A stretch of 32,289 nt of DNA, taken from assembly GCA_031260685.1 (NCBI GenBank), contig JAISLB010000070.1, positions 1 to 32,289 on the forward strand, in the 5' to 3' direction. This DNA is from Oscillospiraceae bacterium (GTDB taxonomy: Bacteria > Bacillota > Clostridia > Oscillospirales > Oscillospiraceae). Below, one piece after another: positions 3 to 26,120 of this stretch. How positions within the stretch are numbered: position 1 is the first letter of the stretch; the number at the start of each line of letters is the position of its first letter. The position numbers and the translations under genes are program-made. The notes below the pieces were generated by a model. That model saw nothing but the letters and a program-made list of their open reading frames with translations, was not told the origin of the DNA and searched no databases.

Positions 3-1349
3 AACGGAAAAATTGAACTTGAAACTAACCAAATCGTCGCGATCTATAAAGAAACACAGCTTCGTAACGCTTATTTTGTAAGCTCAAAAGGAAACGACGC
101 CTTTTCAATAACAAAGGCAATAGCAATTGACCCGTGGATTTTCAAGGCTTACAGTTGGGGTACGGATTATTATACATTAGCCGAGGATTCCGGCTATACG
201 GATACAAATATGATTGCGAAAAAAGCCACCGACGTAACAGTTTCCGCGTCGGGCGTTAATCCAGTAGAAAAAGAACGCGTCATAAAAATAGACGGTGTTA
301 ACTATCTTTATGACGGTACCAACGGTTCGCTGAACAGCACCCTCAGCGGACAAATATTTGAAACGCCTACTTCTGTAACCAATATAGGTATCGGCACAAA
401 ATTCAAGGTCTTGCCGAACGCTGGAGTTCCCTCTAATTCCCCGCTTTCAGAGCTGATACTCAACGCTACGGCAGGCGGAACGCTTGACATATCAATATCT
501 ACAGACTTCAGTTCACCGTTTACAATAACGAGCGCAAGCGGAACCATAACCTTAAGCGGCCAAGCAAACAGCACAAACTTAATGCTATCCGGAAATTTTG
601 AGTTTGTCAATAGTTTCAGCGCGGGAAACAAAACAATAACAGGTACCACCACTTTCATCGGCGGACCGCCGTCTGACGGAAAAACTATCACAACAGACGC
701 TAACAGTAAACTGACTATTACCCCCGCCATTATTATTACTGGCTCCAGCCGCTTCACTTATGACAATACAAATGCTATCTATAATTTTGAACAAGTACCC
801 TCAAGCGAGATTTCCGTACCGAACAGTGCTTCGTTTATGTTAACCAACGGTTTGCAATTAAATGCCGGAAGCGGTTCCACACTAAAGCTCTATAATACCG
901 GACTGGCTGGCCCGACTGCAGCGGCAAGTATTACAACGGCGCGTATTAGTATAGTCGGAACCGCAATACAATTTGTAACTCTGCCGAGCGATTCTGTGAC
1001 CTATAACACAAACGCGTCGTTTATACTCCCGACCGGCAACTTCAACGGACTGCAATTTAAGCCCGGCGACGGCAGCGTAAAAGCAACTATTCAGCGAATG
1101 TCACAGTATACCCCTGTTGACCTCAATGGTTATAGTGATACAATAGCTGGTGATTTACCCGTTTTACCCTATAATTTTTATTTAAGATTGGGAAACGGAA
1201 AAACAGGTTACAAAATAACAAGCTCTGGAACAGCATTAGAGTTCGACGGAAATAACTTAGAAGCTTCCGGCGCGACTTTTACAATATTGTCAGACTCCAA
1301 TATACCAATTCCTCCCCCTCCGGAAGAATCCCCGCTCTCCGGTCCCTAA
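3..1349 (+). CDS. C-terminal part of a beta-rich surface/secreted protein (5' truncated by window edge)
   Basis: Frame is open from position 3 through the listed M at 210 (NGKIELETNQIVAIYKETQLRNAYFVSSKGND...), so the gene starts upstream of the window. Ser/Thr/Asn/Gly-rich repetitive beta-type sequence with a proline-rich C-terminus (PIPPPPEESPLSGP). Confidence 0.7.
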   Translation, partial: NGKIELETNQIVAIYKETQLRNAYFVSSKGNDAFSITKAIAIDPWIFKAYSWGTDYYTLAEDSGYTDTNMIAKKATDVTVSASGVNPVEKERVIKIDGVNYLYDGTNGSLNSTLSGQIFETPTSVTNIGIGTKFKVLPNAGVPSNSPLSELILNATAGGTLDISISTDFSSPFTITSASGTITLSGQANSTNLMLSGNFEFVNSFSAGNKTITGTTTFIGGPPSDGKTITTDANSKLTITPAIIITGSSRFTYDNTNAIYNFEQVPSSEISVPNSASFMLTNGLQLNAGSGSTLKLYNTGLAGPTAAASITTARISIVGTAIQFVTLPSDSVTYNTNASFILPTGNFNGLQFKPGDGSVKATIQRMSQYTPVDLNGYSDTIAGDLPVLPYNFYLRLGNGKTGYKITSSGTALEFDGNNLEASGATFTILSDSNIPIPPPPEESPLSGP

Positions 1350-1362
1350 GGAGACCCTACGT

Positions 1363-2112
1363 ATGAATCAGTTCTCACGTTCCGCGCTTATGTTTGGCGC
1401 TGACGCTATTGCACGGCTTACCGCCTCCCGCGTTGCCTTATTCGGCGCGGGGGGCGTAGGCTCGTACTGTGCGGAGTCGCTCATTCGCGGGGGTCTCGGT
1501 GCGCTCGACATCATCGACGACGACAGAGTTTGCGTGACTAACCTCAACCGCCAGCTCGAGGCAACGCGGAAAACTATCGGAAGCTACAAGGCTGACGCAC
1601 TCCGCGACAGGCTGCTTGAGATTAACCCGAAAGCAGCGATTGTAACGCGCAAGATGTTCTATCTGCCTGATACGGAGCTTGACCTCACGCAATACGACTA
1701 CGTCATTGACGCGGTAGATACAGTAGCTGCGAAGCTTGACCTCGCTCAAAACTGCGAACGGCTCGGGGTTCCGCTGATAGCCGCTATGGGAGCCGGGAAC
1801 AAGCTCGACCCTACGCGCTTTGAGGTTGCCGACATCTACGAAACCTCCGAGTGTCCGCTATGCCGCGTAATGCGCAAGGAGCTTAGGCGCAGAAGCGTCA
1901 AAGCTCTCAAAGTAGTCTACTCGCGGGAGGAACCGCTTACGCCGATAGAAACGGAGGAGCTGAGCTGCAAGAAAAACTGCGTCTGTCCCCCCGGAACCGA
2001 GCGCAAATGCACCGACAGGCGCGCGATTCCCGCGAGTAACAGCTTCGTTCCGCCCGTTGTGGGCTTCATACTTGCGGGAGAAGTCATCAAGCGGCTGTCA
2101 GGCGTAAAATAA
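1363..2112 (+). CDS. tcdA: ThiF/E1-like protein, tRNA threonylcarbamoyladenosine dehydratase (TcdA/YgdL) type
   Basis: GAGGVGSYCAESLIRGG nucleotide-binding motif, DDDxVxxTNLNRQ motif, and C-terminal Cys cluster. SD AAGGAG upstream of the ATG. Confidence 0.85.
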   Translation: MNQFSRSALMFGADAIARLTASRVALFGAGGVGSYCAESLIRGGLGALDIIDDDRVCVTNLNRQLEATRKTIGSYKADALRDRLLEINPKAAIVTRKMFYLPDTELDLTQYDYVIDAVDTVAAKLDLAQNCERLGVPLIAAMGAGNKLDPTRFEVADIYETSECPLCRVMRKELRRRSVKALKVVYSREEPLTPIETEELSCKKNCVCPPGTERKCTDRRAIPASNSFVPPVVGFILAGEVIKRLSGVK

Positions 2113-2174
2113 CGTGCAGCGCGGGCTAATATTTTGCCGTTCAGGGCAGATTTCATCAATGCGGGAGTGTCACT

Positions 2175-5100
2175 ATGTCAGTTCAATTCACGGCAAGTCA
2201 GGAATCGGCAATAAGTTACCGCGGTGAGAAACCGCTGCTGATTTCCGCATCCGCGGGTTCCGGTAAGACCACCGTTCTCGTAGAGCGCATATTGCGTAAA
2301 GTTATTGAGGGAACGGACGTAAGCCGCTTCCTCGTGATAACGTTCACCAGAAACGCGGCTGCAAAACTTCGGAGCGATATTATCGAGGCGCTAAATGATA
2401 AGCTCTCGAAAGTACACGGAGACGAGGAAATCTATTTCAGACGGCAGGTTCAGCAAGCGTATACGGCGCAAATCAGCACAATCCACTCTTTCTGCGGAAC
2501 GCTTCTGCGGGAGTTTGCGCAAAAGCTCGAGATTAGACCGGATTTCCGTCAAATGGAAAACGCGGAAACGGCTGCGCTCCGAGAGAAAATACTCGGCGAA
2601 TTGCTTGACAGCTATTACGACAGTGAAAGTCCCGAGTTTCTCAAGCTTGCGGACATATTCTCCGGAACTGTCAACGATGAGGATTTTGCGGACTCGCTGC
2701 TTGCGGTCTATGACAGGCTCCAAAGTTTAGCGGATCCGCGGGAGCGGCTTGAGCGCGCAATCAACGGTTCCGATAATGAACACGTTGATTATCTGCTTCG
2801 CCATATCGCGGAATTTGCGGATAAATCGCTTGTGTGGCTTACGGAGGAGCGGACGCTGCTTAACAGTTCAATCTACAAGAAAGCTCTCGGCTGCTTGGAC
2901 TATACTATTGACGCGCTCACAAAACTGCGCGGACGCTGCGGCAGTTGGGACGATGTACGCGAAGTCCTGTTTGGCGGCTGTGACATTAGGTGGAGCGCGG
3001 GGATAACGGACGAAGTAACCGCCGGAGCCAAGTTCGCCCGTGATACCGTGAAAAATGAGTGGAACCGCTTCCGCGATGAAATATGGAGCGCGGCGGAGAA
3101 AACTCTTGCAGCGGAAGATGCTTCCGCGGACGAACTCTCGCGTGCGTTTTTTACAATCTTGCGCGATTTCGGAGAAGTTTTCGCGGAGGAGAAAAAAGCC
3201 CGGGGAGCCCTTGACTTCGCTGATTTGGAGCATCTAACGATAAAGCTTCTGCGTAATCCCGAGGTTGCGGCTAGGGCGGCTTCGCGTTACAGCGAGATTT
3301 TGGTTGACGAATTTCAGGACATAAATCCCGCTCAGGACGAGCTGTTCACGCTGCTCCGGAACGGCGCGTCGGCGGCGTTTACAGCTGTCGGAGATATTAA
3401 GCAGAGCATATACAGATTCAGACGTGCAGACCCCGGAATTTTCCTCAACTACTTCGATAGCCCGGATTTTGAGGTTATCTATCTTCAAGAGAATTTTCGT
3501 TCTACCGCGGAGATTATCGGAACGGTCAACACAGTTTTCCGCAGTCTGATGTCTAAGGAATTCGGAGACATCGACTACAACGAAAAAGCTGAATTGAAAC
3601 CCGGACGTGAGTTCCCGGTATCTTTCACTCCGCGGCTGATACAGATTAACACTCCGGTGGGCGGCGAACGAATCCCGCACGAAGCGAAATACGCCGCGCA
3701 GCTGATACATAAGCTGATTACCGAAGAAGGATACGCCTATTCTGACATCTCAATTATCCTGCGAGCCACCAAAGACAAGAGTCTGCACTATGTCAACGCG
3801 CTGCGGGCTTACGGAATCCCCGCGAGTGACAGCAAACGTTCAGATTTTTTTGCCCGCGATGAGATAATGCTGCTTTTGTCATATTTGCAGATAATCGACA
3901 ATCCTCGTCAGGACGTGCCGCTTATTGCGGTTCTGTGTTCACCGCTGTACCTGTTTGACCCGTCAGAGCTTGCGGAAATCCGCGAAAGCAAAAACGGCGT
4001 TAGCTTCTACGAAGCGGTCTGGGAAGCTCAAAACAGCAAGAATGAGATTTTAGCGGAGAAGTGCAATAGGTTCCTGCTCAATCTGCGGGACCTTAGAGTG
4101 TACGCGTCCGATGTAACCAGCGATAGGCTGATAAGCAAAATTGACGAGTATACGCACTTTACGGATATTTACGCCGGAGCGGACAGCCGCGAATTGTATG
4201 TGCGTTTGCTGAATACCGCGGCAAGTTTTGAGAGCAACGGTTACAAAGGCTTGTTCCTCTTCCTGCAGCGTTTAGCGCAGATGAAAGCCGCCTCGGAAGA
4301 ACCGCCCGGCGCAGCGGGAGCTTCTGACAGCGTCATTATACAGTCTGTCCATAGCTCAAAAGGTCTCGAATATAAAGTCGTAATAGCGGCTGACTTAGCG
4401 GGAGAATTCGCGTTTTTAAGACACGATTCGGACGTCCTGTTTCATCCGCAGATTGGGCTTGGGATTGATATAACCGACAAGAAACGCGGAACAAAGCATA
4501 TCTCGCGCCGTAAGTTCGCTATTGCGGAACTGACTAACAGCGAAGAATTTGCGGAAGCGCAGCGTCTGCTCTACGTAATGTTAACCCGTGCGGAGGAGCG
4601 GCTTTACATCTTGGCTTCAATAACCCGCGGCAAGACCGACTGGACATATAAAAATCTTGAAGTATTGAATCCGCTGACGCTCAAAAGCGTAAACAAACCG
4701 CGTGACTGGCTGCTGAACATTCTTGACGCGGAGATTGCGGAATTTACCGATGAAGCGCTTCCCGTGCAGATTCCGCAAGTAAGCGAACCCGCGGAGGAAG
4801 AAGCGCTTCCCGCCGAGGACAAGATACCGCGGCTTGTAAGCGTTCCGGTTTCTATCGTTCCTACTAAGCTCTCCGCCTCACAGCTTAAAGGCGACGATAA
4901 CACTTTCAGGGGTACGGTATTCTCACAGCCGAATTTTCTCAAAGGAAAGGAACTCTCGGCAACCGACAAGGGTACTGCTCTCCATCTCGCGATGCAGCAT
5001 ATAGATTTTGCTAAAACGTCAACGCTTGCGGACATACGGAGCGACATTGAGCGCCAACGGCTTGCGCGCTACCTAACTGACGAGCAAGCAGCCGTAGTTG

Positions 5101-5474
5101 ACGCTGACAAGCTGCTTTCGTTTTTTGCGAGTACGCTCGGCGCGGAGGTTCTTGCGGCAAAGCGGAGCTGGCGTGAGCTGCGCTTCTCGCTCCTTGTCCC
5201 CGCCGGTATCTTAGGTTTAGAGCATATCCCGGAGGACGTCAGGGACACCGTAATCTTACAGGGAATAGCGGATCTATGCTTCGAAACCTCTCAGGGACTG
5301 ACGATAGTTGACTTCAAAACGGACCATATCAGTGCAGAACAGCTCCCGGCAAGGATTGAATACTACCGGGGACAGCTCAAAGCGTATGAGATAGCGCTAA
5401 GCCGGGTGCTGAAAATTCCGGTCACACGGAGTGTTATATACTTTTTTTCGATAGAAAGGGCAGAATATTTATGA
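2175..5474 (+). CDS. addA: ATP-dependent helicase/nuclease subunit A (AddA)
   Basis: UvrD-type motifs: ASAGSGKTTVLVERI, DEFQDINPAQDELF, VGDIKQSIYRFRRADP, VHSSKGLEYKVV. C-terminal RecB-type nuclease motif (GIADLCFE...TIVDFKTD). Confidence 0.9.
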   Translation: MSVQFTASQESAISYRGEKPLLISASAGSGKTTVLVERILRKVIEGTDVSRFLVITFTRNAAAKLRSDIIEALNDKLSKVHGDEEIYFRRQVQQAYTAQISTIHSFCGTLLREFAQKLEIRPDFRQMENAETAALREKILGELLDSYYDSESPEFLKLADIFSGTVNDEDFADSLLAVYDRLQSLADPRERLERAINGSDNEHVDYLLRHIAEFADKSLVWLTEERTLLNSSIYKKALGCLDYTIDALTKLRGRCGSWDDVREVLFGGCDIRWSAGITDEVTAGAKFARDTVKNEWNRFRDEIWSAAEKTLAAEDASADELSRAFFTILRDFGEVFAEEKKARGALDFADLEHLTIKLLRNPEVAARAASRYSEILVDEFQDINPAQDELFTLLRNGASAAFTAVGDIKQSIYRFRRADPGIFLNYFDSPDFEVIYLQENFRSTAEIIGTVNTVFRSLMSKEFGDIDYNEKAELKPGREFPVSFTPRLIQINTPVGGERIPHEAKYAAQLIHKLITEEGYAYSDISIILRATKDKSLHYVNALRAYGIPASDSKRSDFFARDEIMLLLSYLQIIDNPRQDVPLIAVLCSPLYLFDPSELAEIRESKNGVSFYEAVWEAQNSKNEILAEKCNRFLLNLRDLRVYASDVTSDRLISKIDEYTHFTDIYAGADSRELYVRLLNTAASFESNGYKGLFLFLQRLAQMKAASEEPPGAAGASDSVIIQSVHSSKGLEYKVVIAADLAGEFAFLRHDSDVLFHPQIGLGIDITDKKRGTKHISRRKFAIAELTNSEEFAEAQRLLYVMLTRAEERLYILASITRGKTDWTYKNLEVLNPLTLKSVNKPRDWLLNILDAEIAEFTDEALPVQIPQVSEPAEEEALPAEDKIPRLVSVPVSIVPTKLSASQLKGDDNTFRGTVFSQPNFLKGKELSATDKGTALHLAMQHIDFAKTSTLADIRSDIERQRLARYLTDEQAAVVDADKLLSFFASTLGAEVLAAKRSWRELRFSLLVPAGILGLEHIPEDVRDTVILQGIADLCFETSQGLTIVDFKTDHISAEQLPARIEYYRGQLKAYEIALSRVLKIPVTRSVIYFFSIERAEYL

Positions 5475-5875
5475 CTCATAAGCGGCAGATACCCGGCTAT
5501 GTCTATGAACATCTGGGCTTCGTACATAGCGAATACGATATAAAGTGCCTGCTGCTGTTTGCCTTGGAGCATTGCGGGCGTTGGATTCATCTCTCGTCCC
5601 TGACTGAAATCGCGCTCGGAGCTGACGGAGGTTTCACATATTTCGATATGGTCGAGGCGCTGACAAGCCTCGTAAAACTCGGTTTGGCGGAAAACCGCGA
5701 GGACTGCGGACAGTTTTACCGCGTGACGGATAAAGGCACGGAACTGAACGATATCACACGCCGCGACGTCGAGTTTACCGTAAGGCGCGCGGTACGAAAA
5801 ATCTCCGCGAGACGCTACTTCGAGGATATACTGTTAAAGCACAATCTGCCGCCGAAGGAACTGGAGCAACGATAA
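5471..5875 (+). CDS. DUF4364-like winged-helix protein
   Basis: 134 aa ORF overlapping the addA stop (ATGA) and the next gene start. Winged-helix-like pattern (LTSLVKLGLAENRE...FYRVTDKGTEL). Confidence 0.6.
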   Translation: MTHKRQIPGYVYEHLGFVHSEYDIKCLLLFALEHCGRWIHLSSLTEIALGADGGFTYFDMVEALTSLVKLGLAENREDCGQFYRVTDKGTELNDITRRDVEFTVRRAVRKISARRYFEDILLKHNLPPKELEQR

Positions 5876-7254
5876 TGAATTTCAGCCTACTTTTTCCTAA
5901 CGCCGAGAGTTCGCGCGGCAGACCCGCAGGTGTATTTGCGTTTCGCGATTTAGCTCTTGACAAGATTTGCGCGCGTTTTTCGCAGATACAGAGCGAGACA
6001 GATACGTTTCTGCTTGTTCTAAGTGAACAGGGGCTGACAGCCGAAACAATAACCTACCGGCAGGAGATTTTTACGGACTTCGCGGAGAAGCCGCGGCTCC
6101 TGTCCGATTTGCGCACCTTATTCGGAGGTTACGACAGTTTACGGGCGGATTGGGCGGAACTTGCGCACTCCAGCGGCGGTTACTCCGCGCTGAAAGTTAC
6201 GGCGGCTTTTGCTCGCAGGACTTGCGCTCATTTCAAGGCTTTGTCGCAGGTTCTAGCGGAGTATACGCTCAATTCGCGGGGACTGACCGCAATACGCGAG
6301 TATTTTGCTAAACTCGGGGCTGACAGTTCACTCGCGGAAATCGCGGAGATTGCGGCACTTTTTACGAAGGATAGCGCGGAGGATTATACGTGGAGCATAA
6401 ACGCCGCGTCCGACGAAAAGCTCCGTATTATTCACGCGGGGGTTACGGACGTTTCGGAGCTTGAAGCGGAGAGTGTGCGGAAGCGCGTTCTCGGCATCTT
6501 CAAAAAGAAGGAAACCGACCTCGGAGGTATACATCCCGAGCTTTTGCGGAATCTCCAAAATGAAGCTATCTACGAGCTTTACACAGTTTTGACTGCTATT
6601 ACAGGTGGAATCTACGAGTTCTTCCGCGGTTTATCGGAGGAGCTGACCTTTTACGCGGTAGGATTGCGTTACAGCGATTGGCTTAGGGAGAACGGACTCA
6701 CGCTGACTATGCCGGAAATCGGCGGCGCTATTGAGTACAAAGCATTGAGTGACATATATCTATTGACAGAGACTGTGCGTCCGATAGTCGCGAATGATTT
6801 CACGCTGGACGCTTCGGAATCGGGAGTCCTTATTAAAGGAGCAAACTCGAGCGGTAAAACGTCCTTCCTGCGCGGTTTGGGATTGGCGCAAAGCTTTGGG
6901 CAGGCGGGACTTCCGGTTGCGGCGGCGTTTGCGCGGCTTATCCCCGGTTCGCTCTTTACACAGTTTTCGTCGGAGGAAAAAGTCTTCGAGAAAAACGATG
7001 TCGCCGGACGCTTTGAGGGCGAAGTACAGGACCTGCGGGGGATTTTCGACGCTATCAGCGGTGATTCTCTCGTACTGCTGAACGAAACTTTTCAGACGAC
7101 AGCCTATGACGAAGCCGCGGAAGCGCTGCCGCCGATATTGCGGGAACTCACAAAGCCGGGCGCGAGGTACGTTTTGGTTACGCACCTCCCGACCGAACAT
7201 TTCGGCGCTGTACGCATATTAACCGCGGAGAATTTCACCATCAGCGATACATAA
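5875..7254 (+). CDS. MutS-like ATPase without the mismatch-recognition domain (paralog 1)
   Basis: C-terminal MutS-family ATPase: GVLIKGANSSGKTSFLRGLGLAQSFGQAGLPVAA, SLVLLNETFQTT, VLVTHL. Only 459 aa with no recognisable domain I. Confidence 0.75.
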   Translation: MNFSLLFPNAESSRGRPAGVFAFRDLALDKICARFSQIQSETDTFLLVLSEQGLTAETITYRQEIFTDFAEKPRLLSDLRTLFGGYDSLRADWAELAHSSGGYSALKVTAAFARRTCAHFKALSQVLAEYTLNSRGLTAIREYFAKLGADSSLAEIAEIAALFTKDSAEDYTWSINAASDEKLRIIHAGVTDVSELEAESVRKRVLGIFKKKETDLGGIHPELLRNLQNEAIYELYTVLTAITGGIYEFFRGLSEELTFYAVGLRYSDWLRENGLTLTMPEIGGAIEYKALSDIYLLTETVRPIVANDFTLDASESGVLIKGANSSGKTSFLRGLGLAQSFGQAGLPVAAAFARLIPGSLFTQFSSEEKVFEKNDVAGRFEGEVQDLRGIFDAISGDSLVLLNETFQTTAYDEAAEALPPILRELTKPGARYVLVTHLPTEHFGAVRILTAENFTISDT

Positions 7255-8044
7255 AGCTCGGGAAAAATCCTTGCGGAACAGGTCGGGAAACGTTTACAGG
7301 CGGTGCTGTGCTTTTAGGCGGAGCGATTACAACAGGCTGCGAAACGATATCGCTCACTGCGGTCGCTTTCCGCATAAAGCTCGGGAAAAATCCGCGTTCC
7401 GGAGCCGTCAATATGATCGTAGGCGTTTCAGCAATAGGCGGTATCTCAACGACAGGCGGCGGAGTGACTACGACAGGCGGCGGAGTAACAACAACAGGCG
7501 GCGGGGTAACAACGACAGGCGGCGGTTCAGCGGGGGATGAATTGCGTGACAGTACAGTTACCGTTCCGCCGTTCCATTGGTTCGGGCTGTAGAACTCTTG
7601 CGCCCAAGCGGGGCTGTTCCCCTGCCCTACTACGTACGAGATACCGATGTATTGTACCGAGGTACTCATAATATTGGCGTAATGACCGGGGCTGTTGAGC
7701 CAGTCGCTTACAACCCGGGACGGTGTAGACTGTCCGTAAGCTATGTTCTCCGCGGCAAAGGAATACGTAACATTCAGTTCGGTAAACGCGGTAGAGAAAT
7801 AGGTACCGTTAGGACGAGTATGCGCAAATGAGGATAAAACTTCCTTAGCGCGGAGTTGAGATACTCCGTAGGCTTCCGCGGTGAATTGTAAAGCCGGAAG
7901 CCCATTTTCTGCCCTGGCAGCGTTTACTAAGTCGAATACTTCCCACTCATACGCGGAGGGTTCGGCGGAACTTGCAGAAGCGTTGAAGATAACTATGCAC
8001 GAAAGCGTCAGCAGCGCAAACAAATATGTAGCAATACGTTTCAT
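7241..8044 (-). CDS. Secreted CAP (SCP/PR1-like) domain protein with Pro-rich repeats and duplicated C-terminal GFFPSFM motif
   Basis: Signal peptide. CAP motifs: EVFDLVNAARAENGLPAL, SFAHTRPNGTYFSTAF, ENIAYG, WLNSPGHYANIM. (PPPVVVTP)n repeat. SD AGGAGG upstream of the ATG. Confidence 0.85.
   Translation of the reverse strand: MKRIATYLFALLTLSCIVIFNASASSAEPSAYEWEVFDLVNAARAENGLPALQFTAEAYGVSQLRAKEVLSSFAHTRPNGTYFSTAFTELNVTYSFAAENIAYGQSTPSRVVSDWLNSPGHYANIMSTSVQYIGISYVVGQGNSPAWAQEFYSPNQWNGGTVTVLSRNSSPAEPPPVVVTPPPVVVTPPPVVVTPPPVVEIPPIAETPTIILTAPERGFFPSFMRKATAVSDIVSQPVVIAPPKSTAPPVNVSRPVPQGFFPSFMYR
7430..7530. repeat. Imperfect 24-bp tandem repeat encoding PPPVVVTP units
   Basis: Repeated (g/a)(c/a)aggcggcggngtnacnacnac units on + strand; translates to PPPVVVTPPPVVVTPPPVVVTPPPVVEIPP on minus. 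Confidence 0.85.
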
Positions 8045-18951: not shown

Positions 18952-18981
18952 AACTTTTCCTTTCCAAGTGCATATGTATTT

Positions 18982-19003
18982 CAGTGGTCAGTGGTCAGTG
19001 GTC
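18982..19003. repeat. Heptanucleotide array, (CAGTGGT)x3 on + strand
   Basis: cagtggtcagtggtcagtggtc in the dnaG-rpoD intercistronic gap. Confidence 0.95.
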
Positions 19004-19040: not shown

Positions 19041-20699
19041 TTAATCGTCGAACTTACGCATTGCCATAATCGCGCTGAAATCTCCGGACTTGCCGGCTTT
19101 ATCCAGCTGTAAAGTTTTCAGGTAATCCCGCAGTAATTCTCGCGAAGCCGACAAGTTCTCCGGTTTACTGATTATTTCGCAGTAAAGCGACATAGCTTCA
19201 CCGTCTAAAATTGTTTGCAAGGCTCGCGTATCGCTTGCTTCGCGCAGCGCTTCGAAAATCCTCCGCAAGCGGTCATCGCTGAACTCAAGAGCGGACAATT
19301 CGGCTGAAAACTCCGAGTTATTCAGCAATTCGGGGCTTTGTGAGCAGATACGTATTATTCCCGCTTCCGACGGACTATATGCCCTGTTAGAATATACCGG
19401 GAGTTCCTGCTCCGTTTTGCGTTTCTCCGTCCGCGCAAAGGTTTTGCGGGCTTTCGCGATATCGCCGAGTAAGCCGTCGAGGGCAATTCCGCAGTATTCG
19501 GCAGCGCTTGCGGCGTAGATTTCTCGTTCTACATTGCCCGGTACGGACGCTAAGAGCTGTACGGCGTCCTTTACGAAGCTTAGCTTTTGCTCGTTCTGCG
19601 TAATATCGTACTTTCCGCGAAGCTGCTCCAAGCGGAACTCCGTACCGCCTGAACGTTTTTCGAGTAAACGCTCGAACGCTCTCGCACCGTTGTTCGATAT
19701 GAGTTCGTCAACGTCTTTTGCGCCCTCAAGCGTAACTACCCTGACCGACAGCGCAGAGTTACGGAGCAAATCAAGAGCGCGTCCGGTGGCTTTTTTCCCG
19801 GCTTCGTCATTATCATAGCAAATTACAAGCTCCTTTGTATATTGAGATAATAGGTAGCACTGTTCGCTTGTCAGCGCGGTTCCCATAGAAGCTATGGCAT
19901 TGTCAAAACCCGCCTGGTGTAAAGTTATAACATCTATATTACCTTCACAGAGGATAAGGTTTTGCCTTTTGGTATTTTTAGCGAGGTTGATACCGTAAAG
20001 CGCGCGCCTTTTCGAGTAAATATTGGGGATTTCGGGCGAATTGAGGTACTTCGGCTGTCCGTCGCCCATTATGCGTCCTCCGAAGCCTATTACGTCGCCT
20101 TTGCGGTCTATAACGGGGAATATCAAGCGGCTGAAAAACTTATCGCGTCCGTTGGTCCGCAAACCTCCCGCGTCGAGTTCAGCTTCGCTATAGCCTAAGC
20201 CGCGCATTGCGTCCCGCAGCCTGAAGCCGCCCTCCGCGAAACCCAGTCCGAAGCGTACCGCCGTGGACCACTCAATGCGCCGTTTTGCAAGGTAGCTTTT
20301 TCCGGTTTCGGAGAGTTTAAGCTCACTGTGGTAGAAGCGTGCGGCGTCTTTCAGCAGCGCGAGGATTCGTTTGCGGTGAAGTCCCGCCTCCCTGTCTTCG
20401 TCATCGCCGTACGGTACCGCAAGTCCCAAGCGTTTCGCAAGGTATTCTATAGTATCTACGAAACCGAGATTCTCGATTTTTTGAATGAATTGTACTACTC
20501 CCCCGCCCTCTCCGCAGCCGAAACAGTGATACAGCTGCTTATCGGTGGAGATATGGAACGACGGCGAACGCTCCGAATGGAACGGGCACAAGCCGGTGGC
20601 TTCGTTGCCGCGTGTTTTGAGCGAAACATAGGTTGCGGCGACTTCGGCGAGGTCACTGCGGGCGATAACATCATCTATAAATTCTCTCGGAATAGCCAT
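19041..20699 (-). CDS. dnaG: DNA primase
   Basis: CHC2 zinc motif CPFHSERSPSFHISTDKQLYHCFGCG, RKGDVIGFGGRIMGDGQPKYLNSPE, TOPRIM (LILCEGNIDVITLHQAGFDNAIASMGTALT, CYDNDEAGKKA). Confidence 0.96.
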   Translation of the reverse strand: MAIPREFIDDVIARSDLAEVAATYVSLKTRGNEATGLCPFHSERSPSFHISTDKQLYHCFGCGEGGGVVQFIQKIENLGFVDTIEYLAKRLGLAVPYGDDEDREAGLHRKRILALLKDAARFYHSELKLSETGKSYLAKRRIEWSTAVRFGLGFAEGGFRLRDAMRGLGYSEAELDAGGLRTNGRDKFFSRLIFPVIDRKGDVIGFGGRIMGDGQPKYLNSPEIPNIYSKRRALYGINLAKNTKRQNLILCEGNIDVITLHQAGFDNAIASMGTALTSEQCYLLSQYTKELVICYDNDEAGKKATGRALDLLRNSALSVRVVTLEGAKDVDELISNNGARAFERLLEKRSGGTEFRLEQLRGKYDITQNEQKLSFVKDAVQLLASVPGNVEREIYAASAAEYCGIALDGLLGDIAKARKTFARTEKRKTEQELPVYSNRAYSPSEAGIIRICSQSPELLNNSEFSAELSALEFSDDRLRRIFEALREASDTRALQTILDGEAMSLYCEIISKPENLSASRELLRDYLKTLQLDKAGKSGDFSAIMAMRKFDD

Positions 20700-20702
20700 T
20701 GT

Positions 20703-20963
20703 TTCAGTGAACAGTTAACAGTGAATAGTGAACAGTCTGCCGCACACGGCGCGGGGGCGCTGACTGTCAAATTCACGCTGACTGTTTCCCTCCTCCCTCT
20801 GACAGATAGCAGATAGCAGATATCAGTTATCAGATAACTGAATAACAAATAGCCAACACTGACCACTGACCACTGACCACTGAGACCACTGACCACTGAC
20901 CACTGACCACTGACCACTGACCACTGTTCACTGTTCACTGTTCACTGTTATCTGTTCACTGAA
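20703..20963. repeat. Heptad-repeat intergenic element with 34-bp imperfect terminal inverted repeats between dgt and dnaG
   Basis: Left arm 20703-20736 ttcagtgaacagttaacagtgaatagtgaacagt; right arm 20930-20963 actgttcactgttcactgttatctgttcactgaa (reverse complements with 2 mismatches). Between them: nine gaccact heptads (20861-20925, with one 2-nt 'ga' interruption) and a gatagca/gttatca array (~20802-20840). Confidence 0.9.
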
Positions 20964-21861
20964 CAAGCGCCCAGCTTTTCGGGATAAACAGTTCCTCAAA
21001 AGTTCTTACGGCGAATCTGTCAGTCATTCCCGCGATGAAATCTGTCGCTTCGCGCTCGTCTAAGCCGTCCGCGGTGTAATATTCGTAGAGCTTTGTCAGT
21101 ATTCCCGCAACTTTTGATTCCTCGCTCTTGGCGATAGGATTCATATACACCTCGGAAAAGAGAAACTCGCGGAAGCTGCTGACAACAAAAAACATCTCCG
21201 GACTGAATTTAAGCTCCGAACCGCCGAGACTGTTTTTTACCAGGTCTGTTACAATACTGTTGATTCTCTCGCTGTAACTCTCGCCGATTACGAGTTCAAA
21301 CTCCGGCGGTAAGCCTTTGATAATCCCAGCTCTCAGCGCATCATCGGTATCGTGACAGATGTACGCAATTCTGTCGGCTGCGTGAACGGTTTTTCCCTCG
21401 GGGGTTTGAGGAGTACCGCCGTCGTTGTGGTTTAGTATACCGTCCCTGACAGCCTGCGTGAGGTTTAAGCCGTCGCCGTCTTTCTCGAGAATGTCAACAA
21501 CGCGCAGGCTTTGTTCGTTATGACGGAAGCCCCCGGGAGCTACGGAGTTGAGAACTTTTTCACCGGCGTGACCGAAAGGCGTGTGACCCAGGTCGTGCCC
21601 CCAAGCTATAGCCTCCGTAAGGTCTTCGTCATAGCCGAGCGCCCGCGCAATGGTGCGGCTAATCCGCACCACCTCCATTGTATGCGTAAGCCTTGTGCGA
21701 TAGTGGTCGCCCTCGGGGTCGAGAAACACCTGAGTTTTGTGAGCAAGCCTCCGGAACGCTTTACAATGTATTATCCGGTCAATATCGCGCTGATACTCGC
21801 CGCGGAGTTCGCTTGAGATTTCGGGACGCCGCCGCGACTTCGCTTCAAAATGTCCCGTCAT
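20956..21861 (-). CDS. dgt: dGTPase-like HD-domain triphosphohydrolase
   Basis: CKAFRRLAHKTQVFLDPEGDHYRTRLTHTMEVVRISRTIARALG, AWGHDLGHTPFGHAGE, HNEQSLRVVDIL. Confidence 0.9.
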   Translation of the reverse strand: MTGHFEAKSRRRPEISSELRGEYQRDIDRIIHCKAFRRLAHKTQVFLDPEGDHYRTRLTHTMEVVRISRTIARALGYDEDLTEAIAWGHDLGHTPFGHAGEKVLNSVAPGGFRHNEQSLRVVDILEKDGDGLNLTQAVRDGILNHNDGGTPQTPEGKTVHAADRIAYICHDTDDALRAGIIKGLPPEFELVIGESYSERINSIVTDLVKNSLGGSELKFSPEMFFVVSSFREFLFSEVYMNPIAKSEESKVAGILTKLYEYYTADGLDEREATDFIAGMTDRFAVRTFEELFIPKSWALVQ

Positions 21862-22964: not shown

Positions 22965-23010
22965 CAAATAACAGTTATCAAATATCAAATATCAAATATC
23001 AAATATCAAA
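22962..23010. repeat. Heptanucleotide array TGACAAA-TAACAGT-(TATCAAA)x5
   Basis: Read directly: tgacaaataacagttatcaaatatcaaatatcaaatatcaaatatcaaa. It begins at the TGA stop of the first ABC ATPase. Confidence 0.95.
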
Positions 23011-23019
23011 TTCGGGGGC

Positions 23020-25180: not shown

Positions 25181-26073
25181 CAACGCTGGCTTTTGCGAAG
25201 CTAAACCTCACGTTTGAGGTCGTCGGAAAACGTTCCGACGGCTATCACGAAGTGCGCTCTGTTATGCAGTCGGTGGATTTCGGCGATACGGTGTCGATAG
25301 TTCCCGCGGCGTACATTGACGCTCCTAACTCAACTGAAATGCACTGTATTACGACGGGCGGAGGGGTACGTCTCCCGTGGGGAACTAAGAACAGCGCGGT
25401 TAAAGCCTATAACCTGTTCCGCGATACTTTCGGGCTTCCGGCGGAACAGCTTGACATCAATATCAATAAAGTTATTCCGATATGCGGAGGTCTCGGAGGG
25501 AGCAGTACGGACGGTTCCGCGGTTCTCCGGCTGCTCAACGGCTATTGCGGGACAGGGCTGTCAACCGCGGAACTTCAAACTCTCGCGGCTAAACTCGACA
25601 GCGACGCAGCGTTCTGCATATCGGGCGGTACGGCGCTGGCAACAGGGCGCGGAGAGCTTCTCGAGGCTTTGCCGCCGCTTCCGGACTGCGGTATCGTTAT
25701 TGTTAAGCCGAATACACTCACGGGCTTAGTGACGACGAATATGTTCGCCGCGTTCGACCGCGTAAAGCTTCGTATGAAACCGGACCACTGCGGGCTGACA
25801 GCTGCCCTGAAAGCGGGCGATACAGCCGGTATAGCACGAAGACTGTATAACGTATTTGTTGAGGTTCTTCCGCGCTCCTACAAAGAGGAAATTTCGGACG
25901 CTATCGGGGCATTGCTGAACGTCAATGCCTTAGGAGCTTCGATGACGGGCAGCGGTTCCTGCGTATTCGGACTATTCGAAACAACGCGGAAAGCAGATTC
26001 AGCGGCAGAAGAACTGAGAGCGGACGGTTTCGAGTGCTGGAGCGTTGCCGCGCTGCTGACCACTAGCCGCTAA
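25177..26073 (+). CDS. ispE: 4-diphosphocytidyl-2-C-methyl-D-erythritol kinase
   Basis: GHMP kinase: AFAKLNLTFEVVGKRSDGYHEVRSVMQSVDFGD, PICGGLGGSSTDGSAVLR, ASMTGSGSCVFGLF. GTG start overlapping the apgM stop. Confidence 0.92.
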   Translation: MTTLAFAKLNLTFEVVGKRSDGYHEVRSVMQSVDFGDTVSIVPAAYIDAPNSTEMHCITTGGGVRLPWGTKNSAVKAYNLFRDTFGLPAEQLDININKVIPICGGLGGSSTDGSAVLRLLNGYCGTGLSTAELQTLAAKLDSDAAFCISGGTALATGRGELLEALPPLPDCGIVIVKPNTLTGLVTTNMFAAFDRVKLRMKPDHCGLTAALKAGDTAGIARRLYNVFVEVLPRSYKEEISDAIGALLNVNALGASMTGSGSCVFGLFETTRKADSAAEELRADGFECWSVAALLTTSR

Positions 26074-26120
26074 CTACTAACTACTAACCACTGACCACTG
26101 ACTGCTAATCACTAAACACA
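26058..26120. repeat. Degenerate heptad array (gaccact agccgct aactact aactact aaccact gaccact gactgct aatcact aaacaca)
   Basis: Read directly; starts inside the last codons of ispE and fills the whole convergent gap to the next gene. Confidence 0.85.

What the first reader, a model, noticed from the sequence alone, without database searches (positions are those of the whole stretch)
20703..20963. 261-bp heptad element with 34-bp terminal inverted repeats between dgt and dnaG
The gap between the dgt stop and dnaG ATG is almost wholly built from heptads, and its two ends are 34-nt reverse complements with only two mismatches (TTCAGTGAACAG[T/A]TAACAGTGAA[T/C]AGTGAACAGT). In a dgt-dnaG transcript this would form a long basal stem enclosing about 193 nt. 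TIR-like ends and a defined body are compatible with a MITE-like mobile unit or a selected RNA structure.
Basis: partly seen in the sequence, partly recalled or inferred. Interest (0 to 1): 0.72.

Follow-up and report, generated by a model that had tools for sequence, protein, structure and literature searches.

The report
Inward-pointing heptad repeats between dgt and dnaG
The gap between two housekeeping genes is filled by 7-base repeats that run inward from both gene ends; the same one-way arrangement recurs between genes of this genome and of bacteria from more than ten phyla, so the hairpin is part of a widespread, directional kind of spacer DNA rather than a lone mobile element or RNA switch.

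Summary
In detail: 20703-20736 and 20930-20963 are 34-nt reverse complements (32/34). Heptads cover about 62% of the element, not nearly all, and the right arm overlaps the dgt stop codon. It is not unique: the genome has 85 BLASTn matches. The family consists of heptad arrays reading CAGTNNN inward from both gene ends. In 548 kb, neighbouring arrays are inward-facing 23 times and outward-facing 0 times. The rule is general. In unselected viral contigs the inward pattern hits at least 118 stretches, the outward mirror 1. In 50 genomes the counts are 49 versus 1. In spacers with both arms they are 173 versus 0. Outward hairpins fold equally well, so secondary structure cannot explain the direction. 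Sister-species spacers show block gain and loss with species-specific units; at this locus the sister has different heptads and most relatives have a short spacer with a ribosome-binding site. The two arms are mostly not mirrored unit by unit. No fixed ends, target duplication, linked transposase, Y1 transposase, IS630 transposase or reverse transcriptase was found here. Best reading: a member of the known intergenic heptad repeats (cyanobacterial STRR, Xanthomonas GGGAATC, Beggiatoaceae TAACTGA), spreading as near-neutral spacer DNA by an unidentified directional copying process.

The parts
20703..20736 (+). Left arm: inward heptads CAGTGAA CAGTTAA CAGTGAA TAGTGAA CAGT, 4 nt from the dnaG start codon (dnaG on '-')
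20737..20802 (.). Non-heptad core, containing a GC-rich palindromic module (GCCGCACACGGCGCGGGGGCG) similar to one that recurs in sister-species spacers
20803..20835 (+). Inner inward heptads CAGATAG x2, CAGATAT, CAGTTAT
20857..20963 (-). Right arm: CAGTGGT heptads (read on '-') then CAGTGAA heptads; outer 34 nt pair with the left arm; overlaps the dgt stop codon
19041..20699 (-). dnaG (DNA primase); no Shine-Dalgarno before its start here, present in most relatives
20956..21861 (-). dgt-like HD-domain gene; dgt-dnaG order conserved in the family and order
18981..19003 (+). Further heptad array of the same family (CAGTGGT) between rpoD and dnaG, inward next to the left gene
22976..23011 (+). 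Further heptad array (CAAATAT) between two ABC transporter genes, beside the left gene
26059..26119 (-). Further heptad array (ACTAACT/ACCACTG), inward next to the right gene

Best explanation
The element is one copy of a genome-wide class of intergenic heptad arrays that read 5'-CAGTNNN-3' inward from both neighbouring genes. It works as near-neutral, selfish-like spacer DNA. An unidentified directional copying process (break repair or template switching onto existing arrays, or mobilisation by a lost or trans-acting enzyme) lays heptads of one strand sense inward from each side; slippage then changes the copy number of each arm separately. Arrays fill the spacer up to what selection protects: the stop codon on 3' sides and usually the ribosome-binding region on 5' sides. 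The long stem is a by-product of the inward orientation, not the selected feature. Shown: multi-copy family, near-absolute polarity, gene-edge hugging, block gain and loss, species-specific units, mostly unmirrored arms. Inferred: neutrality, the copying mechanism, slippage.
For: 85 BLASTn matches in the own genome; 147 exact (CAGTGGT) 20-mer matches there and none in 150 other family genomes. Neighbouring arrays inward 23, outward 0 in 548 kb; spacers with both arms inward 22+30+121, outward 0. Pattern scans: viral contigs at least 118 versus 1; 50 genomes 49 versus 1; GATT heptads 10 versus 1 of 20 genomes. Distances to 3' gene ends median 2-3 nt, to 5' ends 16-24 nt, in tandem, convergent and divergent spacers. 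77 orthologous spacers: both 9, own only 6, sister only 15; empty sites 233 versus about 0 bp and 203 versus 1 bp. The sister uses CAAATAT/CAGTTAA/CAATTAT units. Arms share unit type within a locus of this genome (0.54 versus 0.22, p<0.0002), but in other genomes variable triplets are more alike within an arm (0.77) than between arms (0.57) and show no mirrored register (0.621 versus 0.627 shuffled).
Against: Pure slippage cannot spread one unit to tens of loci, so an unseen dispersal step is needed. Neutrality is not shown: in some viral-collection contigs nearly every spacer is filled, which could mean function. In the sister species the arm order is mirrored (6 to 0), which looks more like a defined terminal inverted repeat. 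The window is in a draft genome of 184 contigs, 91% complete, so an enzyme could be missing from the assembly.
Confidence: 0.55

Rival explanations
1. MITE-like or REPIN-like non-autonomous element: the heptads are multi-site terminal inverted repeats recognised by a transposase acting in trans, and inward polarity is simply end recognition.
For: Multi-copy and intergenic; block presence/absence; ordered, mirrored terminal sequence in the sister species; Y1 transposases present in 16 of 18 heptad-rich genomes.
Against: Y1_Tnp, IS630-type DDE_3 and RVT_1 not found in this genome or the sister; no transposase inside heptad ends in the DNA sampled; ends vary in phase and unit number; no target duplication visible at the empty sites, whose flanks have diverged.
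Confidence: 0.25
2. Selected RNA structure: in the dgt-dnaG transcript the stem brings the dgt stop codon next to the dnaG start and tunes or couples translation.
For: Stable fold, z = -5.75; arms end at the dgt stop and 4 nt before the dnaG start; the ribosome-binding site present in relatives is missing; SD-like motifs in 57% of 14 genes with an array just upstream versus 80% of others.
Against: Outward hairpins are equally stable but absent; arms not mirrored; same arrangement between convergent genes; no homologous sequence in the sister spacer, so no covariation can be scored.
Confidence: 0.1
3. Telomerase-like templated addition of heptads to 3' ends at both sides of a break, which would give inward polarity automatically.
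For: Fits the polarity in every set; a bacterial reverse transcriptase, DRT10, makes tandem repeats (9-nt units in the example studied) in this way (PMC12632851).
Against: No RVT_1 domain found in this genome, the sister or 4 of 16 other heptad-rich genomes.
Confidence: 0.05

Closest known systems
GGGAATC heptad repeats of Xanthomonas (Rehm et al. 2015, PMC4692102)
   Different: Those are G-rich and explained by G-quadruplexes; CAGTGGT, CAGATAG and CAAATAT units lack the G runs, so quadruplexes cannot be the general reason
TAACTGA direct repeats of Beggiatoaceae, cyanobacteria and Bacteroidetes (MacGregor 2015, PMC4679880)
   Same: TAACTGA is the reverse complement of TCAGTTA; mostly toward and just before start codons, canonical ribosome-binding sites rare
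   Different: Mostly single arms and one unit; no general polarity rule or hairpin pairing described in the sections read
Cyanobacterial heptads: STRR and the Nostoc trnL P6b stem (TDNGATT, NNTGAGT; PMC4476775)
   Same: Stem built of degenerate heptads with complementary heptads on the other side; classes replaced wholesale in lineages
   Different: P6b lies inside a group I intron; here the arrays are intergenic in a different lineage. STRR itself is cited from general knowledge
MITEs, REPINs and BIMEs
   Same: Intergenic, palindromic, multi-copy, nested mosaics (features of these families from general knowledge)
   Different: No fixed ends, target duplication or mobilising enzyme found here

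Membership tests
Intergenic heptad repeats (heptameric SSR / STRR type) | Tandem 7-nt units with degenerate positions | tested here: met
   TRF period 7; 112 period-7 arrays in 548 kb
Intergenic heptad repeats (heptameric SSR / STRR type) | Multi-copy, mostly intergenic, species-specific unit | tested here: met
Intergenic heptad repeats (Xanthomonas type) | Convergent pairs close to gene ends | tested here: met
   23 to 0 inward; median 2-3 nt from 3' ends
Intergenic heptad repeats (Xanthomonas type) | G-quadruplex-forming G runs of three or more | tested here: not met
   Units CAGTGGT, CAGTGAA, CAGATAG, CAAATAT contain no GGG
MITE | Terminal inverted repeats and multiple copies | tested here: met
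MITE | Conserved fixed ends shared by all copies | tested here: not met
   Array phase and unit number vary between copies
MITE | Target-site duplication | tested here: inconclusive
   Empty sites found but flanks too diverged
MITE | Related autonomous transposase | tested here: inconclusive
   Y1_Tnp and DDE_3 not found in a 91%-complete genome; none within heptad ends; other transposase families not searched
Cis-regulatory structured RNA | Match to a known family | tested here: not met
   No Rfam match at gathering score in the window
Cis-regulatory structured RNA | Covariation in orthologous loci | not testable with these tools
   The sister spacer has unrelated sequence; within elements arms are not mirrored

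The most novel reading that the evidence does not exclude
Bacteria from many phyla share an unrecognised directional process, enzymatic or mutational, that lays degenerate heptads with inward sense (consensus N[A/C][G/T]TNNN) from gene edges into spacers. The separate Xanthomonas, Beggiatoaceae and Nostoc reports, and this element, would be outcomes of that one process.
Probability: 0.35. Interest if true: 0.85.

Novelty: new variant of a known kind. Interest (0 to 1): 0.55.

Why it matters
Heptads are known to be over-represented in bacterial spacers and have been explained piecemeal by slippage, quadruplexes or translation signals. A near-absolute inward polarity, seen in more than ten phyla and independent of hairpin stability, is explained by none of these. 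It makes a clear prediction for any candidate mechanism and gives a simple test: inward versus outward counts.

Tried and rejected
Stop-codon blocking as the reason for polarity: (CAGTGAA)n and (CAGTGGT)n carry stops in opposite directions, so rejected by inspection. Hairpin stability: inward and outward hairpins fold alike. Translational coupling as the general reason: convergent spacers show the same pattern. Transposase cargo: genes found between inward arrays are ordinary host genes or spurious ORFs. Reverse-transcriptase addition: RVT_1 not found here. Rfam: nothing. A phrogs scan on a badly chosen frame failed and was dropped. Gene calls for the spacer statistics are simple longest-ORF calls, so start positions (and distances to 5' ends) are rough.

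Full report
Observation. The 261-bp element is present as described: arms 20703-20736 and 20930-20963 are reverse complements at 32 of 34 positions with 193 nt between. dgt ends at 20956, so the right arm overlaps its stop codon, and dnaG begins 4 nt from the left arm. Period-7 sequence covers 163 of 261 nt, so 'almost wholly heptads' is an overstatement. The RNA folds well, z = -5.75. No Rfam family matches the window.

It is one of many. BLASTn in the window's own genome (2.10 Mb, 184 contigs, 91% complete) gives 85 matches. The 20-mer CAGTGGTCAGTGGTCAGTGG occurs 147 times there and in none of 150 other genomes of the family. A lag-7 scan of 548 kb finds 112 arrays. Where two neighbours lie within 300 nt they are inward (CAGT-type left, ACTG-type right) 23 times and outward never. 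In gene context, CAGT-type arrays abut the left gene and ACTG-type arrays the right gene, 89 against 17. The three other arrays in the window (18981, 22976, 26059) lie beside the gene that this rule predicts.

The rule is general. Across 50 genomes the inward pattern matches in 49 and the outward mirror in one, at a single locus. Most of those genomes were chosen through the inward pattern, so an unselected test was made: in IMG/VR contigs the inward pattern gives at least 118 stretches and the outward mirror 1. In spacers carrying both arms, inward against outward is 22:0 in this genome, 30:0 in GTDB loci and 121:0 in IMG/VR loci; the last two sets contain the loci that brought them in. GATT heptads behave alike, 10 genomes against 1, and the exception (AATCGTG) reads CGT inward. 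In 299 genomes of the window's own phylum only 6 have the inward pattern, so the trait is patchy.

Why structure does not explain it. Inward and outward hairpins of the same units have the same predicted stability (-59.1 and -59.6 kcal/mol; natural arms -48.4, swapped -48.0). If pairing were selected, the variable triplets should match in mirrored order. In GTDB loci the best mirrored register is 0.621 against 0.627 after shuffling, and triplets are more alike within an arm (0.77) than between arms (0.57). In this genome the two arms of a locus do share unit type (0.54 against 0.22). In the sister species the order is mirrored (6 to 0), so the picture differs between species.

Comparative evidence. 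dgt-dnaG order is conserved in most relatives whose locus reaches dgt. Spacers are 13-189 bp in relatives, mostly with a Shine-Dalgarno before dnaG, against 256 bp here and 500 bp in the sister species G002, whose DnaG is 84% identical. The sister spacer is also heptad-built, but from CAGTTAT, CAAATAT and CAATTAT units. Over 77 orthologous spacers both species have arrays in 9, only this genome in 6, only the sister in 15. At two sites this genome has 233 and 203 bp where the sister has nearly none. The family is thus gained and lost as blocks, and the unit is species-specific. Some elements are nested: heptads outside, an AGAGACGGGGGTTTGGACGT-like inverted repeat inside, and a GTCATTGCGAGC-type palindrome in the centre.

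Position. Arrays start a median of 2-3 nt after stop codons and 16-24 nt from start codons, in tandem, convergent and divergent spacers. This fits DNA that fills whatever selection leaves free. In one IMG/VR contig (L329) most spacers are filled from gene to gene.

Mechanism. No RVT_1, Y1_Tnp or DDE_3 was found in this genome or the sister, and no transposase lay between inward arrays in the sampled DNA. Slippage explains copy-number change but not dispersal or direction. A directional copying or mobilising process is inferred and not identified.

Literature. The convergent arrangement and stop-codon proximity were reported for GGGAATC in Xanthomonas (PMC4692102), TAACTGA before start codons in Beggiatoaceae (PMC4679880), and heptad-built stems in the Nostoc trnL intron (PMC4476775). 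These agree with the inward rule. I found no paper that states it across phyla, within an open-access library only. Telomerase-like repeat synthesis exists in bacteria (PMC12632851) but its reverse-transcriptase domain was not found here.

Verdict. The locus belongs to a known kind, in a new lineage and with non-quadruplex units. The strict cross-phylum polarity is the part of real interest.

Noticed in passing
L329 (IMGVR_UViG_3300047586_000106) 355-6448; L356 50-4713: Contigs of the viral collection in which most intergenic spaces are filled by inward heptad hairpins, starting at the stop codon and ending a few nt before the next gene.
   Followed up: partly
sister species G002, e.g. L052 3157-3657 and many spacers: A long palindromic repeat with GTCATTGCGAGC ends and a GGCAATCCAGTGCCGG inner stem, nested inside heptad elements (265 GTCATTGCGA words in 870 kb, against 4 in 548 kb of the window's genome).
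   Followed up: partly
window 20699-20740, dnaG start: dnaG has no Shine-Dalgarno motif here, while most relatives have one 5-10 nt upstream.
   Followed up: partly
L078 (G001), spacer upstream of dnaG: Degenerate heptads of the form NNNNACT (GTCCACTGTCCACTGTCTACT...) in the same orientation in a more distant congener; G012 has GAGTTAA/TAGTTAA heptads just after the dgt stop.
   Followed up: no
window 7447-7525: A 21-bp tandem repeat, 3.8 copies, mostly within the overlap-prone 3' part of the minus-strand ORF 7241-8044.
   Followed up: no
L323 2064-2140 (IMGVR_UViG_3300012947_000033) and G189:C59:6734-6814: The only outward-facing CAGT/ACTG heptad hairpins seen in any scan.
   Followed up: no
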